Below are positions 861 through 64,000 of a stretch of 64,000 nucleotides of DNA, in pieces. The notes under the pieces are model-generated. The model was not told where the DNA came from, searched no databases, and saw only the letters and a program-made list of their open reading frames with translations. The stretch is taken from contig NZ_JAKMCS010000004.1 in assembly GCF_022662195.1 (NCBI RefSeq), positions 278,134-342,133 of the forward strand, in the 5' to 3' direction. Origin of the DNA: Aestuariivivens insulae. GTDB taxonomy: Bacteria > Bacteroidota > Bacteroidia > Flavobacteriales > Flavobacteriaceae. Numbering within the stretch: the first letter of the stretch is position 1; each line of letters opens with the position of its first letter. Made by a program: the position numbers and the translations under genes.

Positions 861-2384
861 ATGGAGAAGCTTGAAAAAGACCATTTTTATCATATCTATA
901 ATAGAGGAATAAATAGTTGCTCCATTTTTCAAGATGATGGCAATATGCTTTATTTTTTAGAGCTTCTAAAAAAACATTTAGAGCATAAAGTGAACATTGT
1001 TGCATATTGTCTAATGAACAATCATTTTCATTTACTGGTAAAAGTTATTGAGGAAGAGCATACAGTTATTCAAGCTTTTTCAAATCTTTTTAAAGCCTAT
1101 GCTAAAGCCTTTAATAAGCAGCAAAATAGGACAGGGAGTTTGTTTGAAAAGCACTTTAAAAGAAAACAAATTAAAGATGAAACTTATTTAAAGAATCTAA
1201 TCCTGTACATCCACAGAAACCCAAAAACACATAATGTAGTTAAGTGTTTTGAAGACTATAAGTTTTCGTCTTATAATTATTACTTCAAGGAAGAAACCAG
1301 CCTCATTTCATATACTAAGCCGTATGTAATTAACTTATTCGATAGTGCTGATAATTTTAAATATAGCCACAATAAAATGGATGTAGATAATATAGACCTA
1401 CAAGGTTTTGAAAACATTGTAGGTCATGAACATCATGAAGCTTCCAACCTGCAAGGTCTCAAAGACCTTGTAGGTTTGTCTATGAAAGACAAATTCTACC
1501 AATACATACAGGAACTACAGGACACTATTACATCAAAACTGGAAAGTATCGATGGGAAAGCAAAATTTCGTGAAGACCTATGGCAACGGCCAGAGGGTGG
1601 TGGCGGACGTACCCGTGTTATTGAAAATGGAGAGGTGTTTGAAAAAGGTGGTGTTAATATTTCGGCGGTACACGGTAAGTTGCCACAATCTATGCAAGCC
1701 TATTTTAAAGTTGGAGATGTCGATTTTTTTGCCTGTGGCCTCAGTTTAGTTATCCACCCTAAAAACCCTATGGTGCCAACCGTGCATGCCAATTGGCGTT
1801 ATTTTGAAATGTATGATGAAACCGGACATATTGTAGACCAATGGTTTGGTGGCGGACAGGACTTAACACCTTATTACCTCTTTGAAGAAGATGCCAAACA
1901 TTTTCATCAGGTATGTAAAACAGCCTGCGACAAGCATAACACTGAATTTTATCCCAATTACAAAAAACGTTGCGACGACTATTTTTACAATGCCCACAGG
2001 AATGAAGCGCGTGGTATAGGCGGTTTGTTTTTCGATTATTGCAAGGCATCCAATAACATGACTATGGAAGACTGGTATAGCTTTGTAACCGAGGTAGGAA
2101 ATAGCTTTTTGGAAGCTTATGTGCCCATTGTTGAAAAGCGAAAGGATTTGCCTTATACCAAAGCCCATAGAGATTGGCAGGAAATACGTCGAGGCCGTTA
2201 TGTAGAGTTCAATTTGGTGCATGATAAAGGGACTTTGTTCGGATTAAAAACCAATGGCCGAATAGAAAGTATTTTAATGAGTTTGCCTCCACACGTACAG
2301 TGGGTTTATGATCACCATCCTGAAGCTGGTAGTGAAGAAGAAAAATTAATTGAAGTTTTACAGAACCCTAGGGATTGGGTGTAA
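861..2384 (+). CDS. hemF: RAYT-coproporphyrinogen III oxidase in-frame fusion (aerobic HemF)
   Basis: One 507-codon frame with two unrelated parts. Residues 1 to about 150 are a REP-associated tyrosine transposase (HFH motif, 'YIHRNP' Tyr). Residues 151-207 are a low-complexity linker encoded partly by REP hairpins. Residues 208-507, from ATG 1482, are a complete 300-residue HemF ('RPEGGGGRTRV', 'HANWRYFE', 'WFGGGQDLTPYY', 'RGRYVEFNLVHDKGT'), the oxygen-dependent enzyme converting coproporphyrinogen III to protoporphyrinogen IX. HemF itself looks intact. The native start is probably ATG 1482, only five bases after the second hairpin. Whether the cell makes the fusion, free HemF or both cannot be decided here. 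hemB follows about 1.7 kb downstream. Confidence 0.85.
   Translation: MEKLEKDHFYHIYNRGINSCSIFQDDGNMLYFLELLKKHLEHKVNIVAYCLMNNHFHLLVKVIEEEHTVIQAFSNLFKAYAKAFNKQQNRTGSLFEKHFKRKQIKDETYLKNLILYIHRNPKTHNVVKCFEDYKFSSYNYYFKEETSLISYTKPYVINLFDSADNFKYSHNKMDVDNIDLQGFENIVGHEHHEASNLQGLKDLVGLSMKDKFYQYIQELQDTITSKLESIDGKAKFREDLWQRPEGGGGRTRVIENGEVFEKGGVNISAVHGKLPQSMQAYFKVGDVDFFACGLSLVIHPKNPMVPTVHANWRYFEMYDETGHIVDQWFGGGQDLTPYYLFEEDAKHFHQVCKTACDKHNTEFYPNYKKRCDDYFYNAHRNEARGIGGLFFDYCKASNNMTMEDWYSFVTEVGNSFLEAYVPIVEKRKDLPYTKAHRDWQEIRRGRYVEFNLVHDKGTLFGLKTNGRIESILMSLPPHVQWVYDHHPEAGSEEEKLIEVLQNPRDWV
1395..1476 (+). repeat. Two REP hairpins inside the RAYT-HemF reading frame
   Basis: Hairpin 1 (1395-1425) has arms GACCTACAA/TTGTAGGTC with an inner GTTTT/AAAAC. 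Hairpin 2 (1446-1476) has 14-base arms AACCTGCAAGGTCT/AGACCTTGTAGGTT around CAA, with one mismatch. Both are translated in the fused frame, as 'LQGFENIVG' and 'LQGLKDLVG', and the second ends just before the HemF ATG at 1482. In mRNA they would fold over the HemF initiation region. Confidence 0.8.
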
Positions 2385-57720: not shown

Positions 57721-57756
57721 TTCCTCCTTACCTGCCTGCCGGCAGGCAGGGCTCAG
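57721..57756 (+). pseudogene. tRNA-Asn 5' relic interrupted by the CCTGCC palindrome
   Basis: TTCCTCCTTA (57721-57730), the perfect 20-bp palindrome CCTGCCTGCCGGCAGGCAGG (57731-57750), then GCTCAG (57751-57756). Without the palindrome the 16 bases equal the start of the intact tRNA-Asn at 57831-57846. After GCTCAG the sequence diverges, keeping a GAGC that could be the D-stem 3' arm. It sits right behind the promoter, so it was probably the first gene of a tandem tRNA-Asn pair. Confidence 0.75.
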
Positions 57757-57831
57757 AACTGAGCTTATGAAGTTCCGGCAGTATTGTAAGAGTAGTGAAG
57801 TCAATAAAAGACTTAAAAATGTTTTTAATAT

Positions 57832-57905
57832 TCCTCCTTAGCTCAGTTGGTTAGAGCATTTGACTGTTAATCAAAGGGTCCTTGGTTCGAGCCCAAGAGG
57901 GGGAG
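57832..57905 (+). tRNA. tRNA-Asn(GTT)
   Basis: Complete cloverleaf: acceptor TCCTCCT/AGGGGGA (one wobble), D-stem GCTC/GAGC, anticodon stem TTTGA/TCAAA with loop CTGTTAA (anticodon GTT), T-arm CTTGG-TTCGAGC-CCAAG, discriminator G. CCA is not encoded. Confidence 0.95.
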
Positions 57906-57916
57906 CGTCGAAAGAG

Positions 57917-63313: not shown

Positions 63314-63634
63314 AGTTAATTAGTTTAGTAAGAAAGTTAAATTGCGAGGTAGAAAAGGGATAAATAGCCTCTAGTGCGTAGAATACATTTTTCTAAAAAA
63401 AATCGAACTATTAAAGTACGAAACATAATTATAAGGTGCAAAAAATATTTTTATAAAGAATTGAAAGACAGGAAGGGAAATAAAAGTTGTGCTTAAAGAC
63501 GTTGTGAAGTTTTACTGTTTTAAGATTTTCAAAAAGAAAGGAATGTTAAAAAGAAGGTTATAGGGCTTGGTTTAAATAAAAAAGATTCATATAATTACGC
63601 GAATTTTAATTTAGGCTCCATAGTTCTAGGGATA

Positions 63635-63741
63635 CCTGCCTGCGAGCCAGATTATGGCCTTATAGTTCAAGGGATAGAACAAAAGTTTCCTAAACTTTAG
63701 ATCCAGGTTCGAATCCTGGTAAGGTCACTAAGGCAGGCAGG
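63635..63741 (+). mobile_element. Palindrome-bounded insert carrying tRNA-Arg(CCT)
   Basis: Left half CCTGCCTGC (63635-63643), 12 bases, tRNA-Arg(CCT), CTAA, right half GGCAGGCAGG (63732-63741). The halves are those of the 20-bp palindrome seen intact in the tRNA-Asn relic and can pair over nine bases. The insert sits exactly between loop and 3' D-stem of tRNA-Arg(TCT), with no bases of that tRNA lost. Confidence 0.8.
63656..63727 (+). tRNA. tRNA-Arg(CCT)
   Basis: Complete 72-base cloverleaf: acceptor GGCCTTA/TAAGGTC, D-stem GTTC/GAAC, anticodon stem AAAGT/ACTTT with loop TTCCTAA (anticodon CCT), T-arm CCAGG-TTCGAAT-CCTGG, discriminator A, no encoded CCA. It lies inside the insert that splits tRNA-Arg(TCT). 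Confidence 0.93.
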
Positions 63742-63775
63742 GAACAAAAATTTTCTAAACTTTAGATCCTGGTTC

Positions 63776-64000
63776 GAATCCTGGTGGAGTCACAAAGTGA
63801 ATGCGCCAGAGTTGCGAAGCAACTGTAAAGCGAAGCTTTAAGATTCGAGGTTTACCCTGAGCGGTGCCGAAGGGAATCCTGGTGGAGTCACAAAGTGAAT
63901 GCGCCAGAGTTGCGAAGCAACTGTAAAGCGAAGCTTTAAGATTCGAGGTTTACCCTGAGCGGTGCCGAAGGGAATCCTGGTGGAGTCACAAAGTGAATGC
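63776..64000 (+). repeat. 98-bp tandem repeat carrying the tRNA-Arg(TCT) 3' end
   Basis: Units start at 63776, 63874 and 63972 (last one cut by the window). Each begins with GAATCCTGGTGGAGTCACA, the T-loop to acceptor end of tRNA-Arg(TCT). Each continues with two adjacent 15-base hairpins AGTTGC-GAA-GCAACT and TAAAGC-GAA-GCTTTA, then a REP-like CCCTGAGCGGTGCCGAAGGG. The units are identical as far as visible. Confidence 0.92.

What the first reader, a model, noticed from the sequence alone, without database searches (positions are those of the whole stretch)
63614..63792. A tRNA gene nested inside a tRNA gene: tRNA-Arg(CCT) within the D-loop of tRNA-Arg(TCT)
Seen directly: the two parts of tRNA-Arg(TCT) (63614-63634 and 63742-63792) together make exactly 72 bases with pairing acceptor and D stems. 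Between them lies a 107-bp insert whose ends are complementary (CCTGCCTGC / GCAGGCAGG) and which contains a full tRNA-Arg(CCT). If RNase P and the 3' nuclease free the inner tRNA, the outer halves would keep 9-bp GC-rich complementary tails. This recalls the paired tails of split tRNAs in Nanoarchaeum. AGA codons are frequent in this window, so a TCT tRNA is needed; either another copy exists or this one is rejoined. The two stem mismatches in the outer tRNA favour decay, but do not settle it.
Basis: partly seen in the sequence, partly recalled or inferred. Interest (0 to 1): 0.95.

Follow-up and report, generated by a model that had tools for sequence, protein, structure and literature searches.

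The report
tRNA gene nested inside tRNA gene
In a bacterium of the same genus as Aestuariivivens sediminis, an intact arginine tRNA gene sits inside the D-loop of an older, mutated copy of itself; the older copy is likely dead, and related loci suggest that small mobile elements, likely driven by a GIY-YIG nuclease, break tRNA genes at their loops while supplying a whole replacement.

Summary
The nested gene is real. Outer halves 63614-63634 and 63742-63793 flank a 107-bp insert with 9-bp complementary ends holding a canonical tRNA-Arg(CCT), the only CCT tRNA found in the genome. The split-tRNA reading is not supported. The outer "TCT" tRNA is a CCT tRNA with four substitutions against a relative's intact gene: one makes the anticodon TCT, two break stems. 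An unrelated intact tRNA-Arg(TCT) exists; RtcB was not found.

Relatives show what it belongs to. Aestuariivivens sediminis has the same D-loop insertion amplified, with four 5' and four 3' halves around one intact tRNA. In 11 database stretches the same tRNA-Arg is broken at the same base; 10 hold an intact tRNA-Arg and 7 a small GIY-YIG nuclease gene. The same layout occurs at tRNA-Leu, -Asp, -Met, -Pro and other tRNA-Arg genes; for one tRNA-Leu locus two relatives have the empty site.

Best reading: a nuclease-less member of a group of tRNA-breaking, tRNA-replacing elements. Seven paper searches listed nothing on it. The nuclease's role is inferred.

The parts
63614..63634 (+). Outer (displaced) tRNA-Arg, 5' half GGCTCCATAGTTCTAGGGATA
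   Evidence: acceptor strand identical to intact G001 tRNA-Arg(CCT), one D-loop change A14>T
63635..63643 (+). Left arm CCTGCCTGC of the insert
63644..63655 (+). 12-nt spacer GAGCCAGATTAT (similar in A. sediminis: GTGCCAAACAAAT)
63656..63728 (+). Inner, intact tRNA-Arg(CCT), the only CCT tRNA found in the genome
63729..63741 (+). 4-nt spacer TAAG and right arm GCAGGCAGG (63733-63741)
63742..63793 (+). Outer (displaced) tRNA-Arg, 3' half; carries G30>A, C34>T (anticodon CCT to TCT) and a T-stem A>T
63776..64000 (+). 98-bp tandem array: 3' tail of the outer tRNA from the T-loop (GAATCC...), downstream DNA, and REP-like CCCTGAGCGGTGCCGAAGG joined back to GAATCC; runs off the contig
57722..57756 (+). 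Broken 5' piece of tRNA-Asn (TCCTCCTTA / GCTCAG) split by the 20-bp palindrome CCTGCCTGCCGGCAGGCAGG (57731-57750)
57832..57906 (+). Intact tRNA-Asn(GTT) 75 bp downstream of its broken piece

Best explanation
An intact tRNA-Arg(CCT) gene with 9-bp complementary arms sits at a clean break in the D-loop of an older tRNA-Arg(CCT) copy, and the insert is likely a small mobile cassette that breaks this tRNA gene while bringing the replacement with it. Shown: the break point (GGGATA^GAA) with no lost or duplicated base against the intact gene; the four substitutions in the outer copy; the same break in the same tRNA in other genomes, mostly labelled Bacteroidota, often with a one-domain GIY-YIG gene and nearly always with an intact tRNA beside it; the same layout at other tRNA genes, with an empty site in two relatives for one of them. 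Inferred: (1) a GIY-YIG nuclease cuts tRNA genes at their loops; (2) repair against an element-bearing copy inserts the element, which leaves one whole tRNA; (3) the palindrome at the break is a scar that keeps the displaced copy from being cut again; (4) here the nuclease gene is absent and the cassette is a passenger, mobilised in trans or in the past; (5) the outer tRNA is no longer made and decays. Repeats of the process, or tandem duplication of the two flanks, gave the multi-level nest in A. sediminis.
For: Intact relatives: G001 L049 and G002 L048 carry a single tRNA-Arg(CCT) with the outer copy's GGCTCCA acceptor; the inner gene differs from G001's only by three compensated acceptor pairs. 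Multi-level nest in A. sediminis with arms, spacer and acceptor like the window's. Exact-pattern scan of genome contigs: 11 stretches with CCTGCC at this D-loop base (the pattern itself fixes this base); in 11 of 11 a 3' piece resumes with GAA, 10 of 11 hold an intact tRNA-Arg(CCT) and 7 of 11 a GIY-YIG ORF (7 of the 10 scanned; none in the eleventh, A. sediminis); L071 is another nested case. GIY-YIG hits in the genus: 8 of 32 examined (of 39 listed) lie beside a tRNA or tRNA piece. Family: 5 of 12 loci scanned (11 from other genera, 1 own) have a tRNA gene alongside; four of those five have a BLAST-detected partial copy, the fifth an interrupted start read by eye. Empty site for tRNA-Leu(CAA): in G001 and G003 the element's flanks adjoin with a 24- or 26-bp overlap, in essence the tRNA 5' piece; G002 has a broken copy with two palindromes and no ORF. 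Five of five ORFs tested match PF01541.
Against: No GIY-YIG gene was found near the nested locus: the nearest PF01541 hit on its contig is G000:C28:223238-223465, about 118 kb upstream; downstream the contig ends. Cutting of any tRNA gene is untested. Most GIY-YIG hits have no tRNA nearby (24 of 32 examined in the genus; 7 of 12 loci in the family). Two broken copies in the genome, both beside tRNA-Leu(TAG), show no palindrome, and some palindromes of the database loci are weak. ARAGORN still calls the joined outer tRNA. In A. sediminis the left and right units do not match one to one (the outermost 3' half fits the inner acceptor type), so simple recursion alone does not explain it. On the nuclease tree three tRNA-locus rows fall among the rows without tRNA. 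In a draw of 296 genomes of the phylum only the window's own genome matched.
Confidence: 0.62

Rival explanations
1. A working split tRNA: after the inner tRNA is cut out, the outer halves stay paired by the 9-bp arms and act as, or are rejoined into, a tRNA-Arg(TCT).
For: Arms are perfectly complementary; the predicted RNA fold keeps the outer acceptor stem and the arm helix around the inner tRNA (4 of 200 shuffles fold as well); ARAGORN accepts the joined outer tRNA.
Against: Intact tRNA-Arg(TCT) elsewhere; two stem-breaking changes; no RtcB match (the control rings in 9 of 14 genomes); outer copies in A. sediminis (two of three) and in L071 are plainly broken.
Confidence: 0.05
2. REP-type palindromes moved by a REP-associated tyrosine transposase hit tRNA loops; the inner tRNA arrived by ordinary duplication, and the GIY-YIG genes are bystanders.
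For: The palindromes look like REPs; the window's genome has one broken Y1_Tnp piece and one Y1-like domain; insertion without target duplication is typical of that enzyme class (recalled).
Against: No Y1_Tnp match in G001, G002 or G003, although G002 and G003 hold the same structures, G003 the nest itself; GIY-YIG ORFs in tRNA loci mostly separate on a small tree from those elsewhere, with three exceptions (Asp, Leu-GAG, one Met) and lineage as a confounder.
Confidence: 0.18
3. Only local tandem duplication and slippage at a tRNA gene between inverted repeats; no mobile element at all.
For: A. sediminis has identical 43-bp left units and repeated right units; 3'-tail tandem arrays are common in the window's genome.
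Against: Slippage does not easily make the first nested copy with a different acceptor stem, nor the same break in distant genomes, nor the empty and occupied sites at tRNA-Leu.
Confidence: 0.13

Closest known systems
Free-standing GIY-YIG homing endonucleases of T4-like phages (seg genes; segB lies between tRNA-Arg and tRNA-Ile and its target is given as the tRNA intergenic region; PMC2988022, passages with Table 1 seen)
   Same: GIY-YIG gene outside introns, in a tRNA locus; presence and absence at a conserved site
   Different: Here the element lies inside the tRNA gene, repeats part of it so that one whole tRNA remains, carries a palindrome at the break, and sits in bacterial chromosomes; the window's copy has no nuclease gene
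Split and tri-split tRNAs of archaea (PMC3218864 and PMC4033280, passages seen)
   Same: tRNA halves with complementary tails (13-nt pairing in Staphylothermus)
   Different: An intact isoacceptor exists, the outer halves decay, no RtcB match; the bulge-helix-bulge motif was not tested
Group I introns in bacterial tRNA genes (mostly at 37/38; PMC4033280, passages seen)
   Same: Insertion in a bacterial tRNA gene
   Different: 107-bp insert in the D-loop, no group I intron match in the window; the insert holds another tRNA
REP palindromes with tyrosine transposases, and Rickettsia palindromic elements (PMC3733652, passages seen; the transposase link is recalled)
   Same: Short palindromes, sometimes inside genes
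   Different: Here tied to tRNA loops and GIY-YIG ORFs; no Y1 transposase match in three of four genomes of the genus
Integrative elements that use tRNA genes as integration sites (recalled; mentioned in PMC3218864)
   Same: The element restores a whole tRNA after insertion
   Different: No integrase in the insert; break in the D-loop, and in the 5' type the 5' part is the one duplicated

Membership tests
Archaeal-type split tRNA | The split gene is needed for its anticodon | tested here: not met
   Intact tRNA-Arg(TCT) at C3:615-689
Archaeal-type split tRNA | Halves pair and form a sound cloverleaf | tested here: not met
   Arms pair, but the joined outer tRNA has two broken stem pairs and does not fold as a cloverleaf; ARAGORN still calls it
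Archaeal-type split tRNA | RNA ligase available (RtcB) | tested here: not met
   PF01139: 0 of 2 genomes (G000, G003); other ligase families not searched
Archaeal-type split tRNA | Bulge-helix-bulge splicing motif | not tested
   No search was made
Archaeal-type split tRNA | Joined product in the cell | not testable with these tools
   Needs RNA data
Free-standing GIY-YIG homing element | GIY-YIG ORF in the element | tested here: not met
   No room for one in the 107-bp insert; nearest PF01541 hit about 118 kb away. Met in related loci, so the window is at most an ORF-less relative
Free-standing GIY-YIG homing element | Precise insertion against an empty site | tested here: met
   tRNA-Leu(CAA) locus, G000 against G001 and G003; for the window's tRNA-Arg only by comparison with the intact gene L049, whose locus shares no neighbours with the window's
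Free-standing GIY-YIG homing element | Nuclease cuts the empty allele | not testable with these tools
   Needs biochemistry
Group I intron in tRNA | Intron core in the insert, position near the anticodon | tested here: not met
   Rfam scan of the window: two tRNA matches only; insert in the D-loop
REP with tyrosine transposase | Y1 transposase in genomes that carry the elements | tested here: not met
   PF01797: 1 of 4 genomes of the genus
tRNA-site integrative element | Integrase gene and att repeats | tested here: not met
   The 107-bp insert has no room for an integrase

The most novel reading that the evidence does not exclude
Bacteroidota carry an undescribed class of selfish elements that live inside essential tRNA genes: a one-domain GIY-YIG nuclease cuts tRNA genes at the D-, anticodon- or T-loop, the element tags the displaced copy with a palindrome that makes it uncuttable, and supplies a whole tRNA, so it can never be deleted without killing the host. 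The nested tRNA-in-tRNA is its smallest form, able to nest in itself again and again, so that a tRNA gene is replaced from the inside.
Probability: 0.45. Interest if true: 0.85.

Novelty: new variant of a known kind. Interest (0 to 1): 0.72.

Why it matters
A 2014 review calls bacterial tRNA genes surprisingly uniform, with introns at 37/38 as the only significant example of diversity (PMC4033280, passage seen). A tRNA gene inside the D-loop of another, amplified into several levels in a sister species, together with GIY-YIG genes in broken-and-replaced tRNA loci of several Bacteroidota, would be a way for a nuclease gene to live in an essential gene without an intron: break it and bring the replacement. 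It makes testable how tRNA genes turn over, why tRNA fragments litter these genomes, and how mobile DNA becomes hard to delete.

Tried and rejected
Split-tRNA reading: rejected as above. Group I intron: no match. Phage or plasmid origin: the 20-letter junction pattern has no match in viral contigs; the best phage and plasmid records cover 28% and 51% of the query, none 80% (53 of 61 phage records were not listed), so nothing supports a phage or plasmid home. Family-wide search for the junction with one mismatch: 8 of 397 genomes match; only the window's match was read, the other seven differ from the junction letters and were not read further (A. sediminis was not in that draw). Phylum draw: 1 of 296 genomes, the window's own. 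Synteny: genes upstream of the window's locus have no match in the 20-kb regions around tRNA-Arg(CCT) of G001-G003, so those loci are not shown to be orthologous to the window's; G001/G003 and G002-L050/G003 regions do share DNA. The tree of nuclease domains (41 rows after dropping fragments under 58 aa and identical rows) has only 76 columns: rows without tRNA cluster (3 changes, shuffled mean 13.8, 0 of 500 as low), but tRNA-Arg(CCT) rows are not one clade (2 changes), the Asp, Leu(GAG) and one Met row fall on the other side, and lineage is confounded with target, so it does not prove target-specific nucleases. Arm statistics: individually weak; the best inverted repeat is reached by 0 to 265 of 300 shuffles depending on locus, and one locus (G002 tRNA-Leu) was not found by that script and was read by eye. 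The tRNA count rests on a search that scored 150 of 401 candidates.

Papers: listings with abstract beginnings only; passages of PMC4033280, PMC3218864, PMC2988022 and PMC3733652; no paper was read whole. 'Not in print' means these searches of one open-access library.

Full report
WHAT IS THERE. An outer tRNA-Arg is split after base 21, in its D-loop: 5' half 63614-63634, 3' half 63742-63793. The 107-bp insert starts with CCTGCCTGC and ends with GCAGGCAGG and contains a canonical tRNA-Arg(CCT) at 63656-63728. The genome (G000, 4.23 Mb, 33 contigs, 99.97% complete) has 39 tRNA matches (which scored 150 of 401 candidates); anticodons from ARAGORN show one CCT tRNA, this inner one, and one TCT tRNA, unrelated in sequence, at C3:615-689. 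I did not count AGA codons.

WHAT THE OUTER tRNA IS. Against the intact tRNA-Arg(CCT) of a relative of the same genus (G001, L049) the outer tRNA has the same acceptor stem and four substitutions in 73: A14>T, G30>A (breaks the anticodon stem), C34>T (turns anticodon CCT into TCT) and one A>T that breaks the T-stem. The inner tRNA differs from the same reference only by three compensated acceptor pairs. So the outer gene looks like the older CCT gene in decay and the inner one like its replacement. ARAGORN still accepts the joined outer tRNA as tRNA-Arg(TCT), but its minimum-energy fold is not a cloverleaf. RtcB gave no match in G000 or G003. Loss of function is inferred; there are no RNA data.

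SAME GENUS. Three other genomes of the genus were held. G003 is Aestuariivivens sediminis S-DT1-15: its contig C5 has the length of NZ_JAKMCP010000001 and the nested stretch reads the same. It has four 5' halves and four 3' halves around one intact tRNA-Arg(CCT), each junction at GGGATA^GAA, with arms, spacer and inner acceptor like the window's. Two outer 3' halves also carry a 28-nt insert in the anticodon stem; the outermost 3' half has lost its acceptor strand and fits the inner acceptor type, so left and right units do not pair one to one, and both recursive insertion and tandem duplication may have acted. G002 L050 has the tRNA between such arms followed by GAATAG, the start of a 3' half, perhaps a nest that lost its outer gene (inference). 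G001 L049 is a plain tRNA; G001/G003 and G002-L050/G003 regions share neighbouring DNA. The window's locus shares no neighbours with these regions.

OTHER GENOMES. An exact scan of genome contigs (one genome for each of 84,980 species) for TAGTTCNAGGGATACCTGCC found 11 stretches: ten from MAGs labelled Bacteroidales, Bacteroidia, Saprospiraceae, Saprospirales, Bacteroidetes, Bacteroidota or only 'bacterium', and A. sediminis. The pattern fixes the break point and the first six insert letters; what it does not fix is that a 3' piece resumes with GAA after the insert in 11 of 11, mostly after a palindrome, though some palindromes are weak. An intact tRNA-Arg(CCT) lies in the same stretch in 10 of 11 (the eleventh, L064, is cut by its contig end) and a GIY-YIG ORF in 7 of 11 (7 of the 10 scanned; none in A. 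sediminis). In L063 the ORF starts right behind the broken tRNA and ends inside the intact one. L071 is a second nested tRNA-Arg(CCT), of other sequence, with its outer 3' half cut short. Draws by family and phylum show that this precise form is rare.

A GENERAL LAYOUT. Searching PF01541 in the four genomes gave 39 hits. Of 32 examined, 8 lie beside a tRNA or tRNA piece: tRNA-Leu(CAA), tRNA-Leu(GAG, two hits), tRNA-Met (two loci), tRNA-Asp and tRNA-Pro(GGG, two hits); one 17-bp match in L088 was taken as chance; 24 have none. In the 5' type a tRNA 5' piece ends at the D-loop, a palindrome follows, then the ORF and an intact tRNA; in the 3' type an intact tRNA is followed by the ORF, a palindrome and a tRNA 3' tail. 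In 60 genomes of the family there are 15 matches in 11 genomes to the tRNA-Leu ORF: of 12 loci scanned (11 from other genera), 5 have a tRNA alongside, with an interrupted copy and palindrome at the break, including the same tRNA-Leu(CAA) site with the same palindrome in another genus; 7 have none. The tRNA-Leu(CAA) locus shows presence and absence: G001 and G003 have the empty site (flanks adjoin with a 24- or 26-bp overlap, in essence the tRNA 5' piece), G002 has a broken copy with two palindromes and no ORF, G000 has the ORF.

ARRAYS. In G000 a self-comparison of all 39 tRNAs with their flanks found broken copies beside 11, plus tRNA-Asn (read by eye) and one tRNA-Met (array at the start of contig C5), and one tRNA-Val match that I did not inspect. 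Several are tandem arrays with periods of about 98-130 bp: tRNA 3' tail from the T-loop, downstream DNA, REP-like palindrome, tail again. The window's 98-bp array after the nested gene is one of these. Both tRNA genes of the window have a palindrome-broken copy beside them. Two broken copies beside tRNA-Leu(TAG) genes show no palindrome.

MECHANISM. Likely: a GIY-YIG nuclease (PF01541, five of five ORFs tested) cuts tRNA genes at loops; repair from an element-bearing copy inserts the element; one complete tRNA is left; the palindrome at the break disarms the displaced copy. The nested gene would be an ORF-less version in which the replacement tRNA lies between the two palindrome arms. Cutting, immunity and trans-mobilisation are untested, and no GIY-YIG gene lies near the window's locus on the contig that holds it (nearest about 118 kb upstream). 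A tyrosine transposase is less likely because three of four genomes of the genus have no Y1_Tnp match. Nuclease domains from tRNA loci mostly separate from the others on a small tree, with three exceptions and lineage as a confounder.

KNOWN OR NEW. Closest is T4 segB, a free-standing GIY-YIG homing endonuclease in a tRNA cluster (PMC2988022, passages). A review calls bacterial tRNA genes uniform apart from introns at 37/38 (PMC4033280, passages). Seven searches of one open-access library listed no paper on nested tRNA genes or GIY-YIG elements that break and replace bacterial tRNA genes. I rate it a new variant of a known kind, interest 0.72.

Noticed in passing
window 861-2384 (+): One 507-aa ORF joins a REP-associated tyrosine-transposase-like domain (residues about 10-136; under the cut-offs, just over it) to coproporphyrinogen III oxidase HemF (residues 210-506); no Y1_Tnp match in the three other genomes of the genus.
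   Followed up: partly
window 57722-57906: tRNA-Asn has a broken 5' piece with a perfect 20-bp palindrome upstream and only about 75 bp between piece and intact gene: the same layout without an ORF.
   Followed up: partly
L002, L011, L023, L032 (tRNA-Gly, -Thr, -Gln, -His of the window's genome): Tandem arrays of tRNA 3' tails with REP-like palindromes and downstream DNA, 2-5 extra copies each; origin and role unexplained.
   Followed up: partly
L087 (G002, tRNA-Pro GGG): Two near-identical tandem units, each a tRNA start with hairpin-like sequence in place of the D-loop and anticodon arm plus a GIY-YIG ORF, ahead of one intact tRNA.
   Followed up: no
L134 250-620 (G002, tRNA-Leu CAA): The broken tRNA copy carries two different palindromes (CCTACCTTCGGTAGGTAG-like and CCTGTCTGCCGACAGGCAGG), so one piece can be hit more than once.
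   Followed up: no
L047 / L073 (A. sediminis): Inner tRNA bodies match their own genome's outer tRNA type while arms and acceptor resemble the window's insert, which hints at gene conversion.
   Followed up: no
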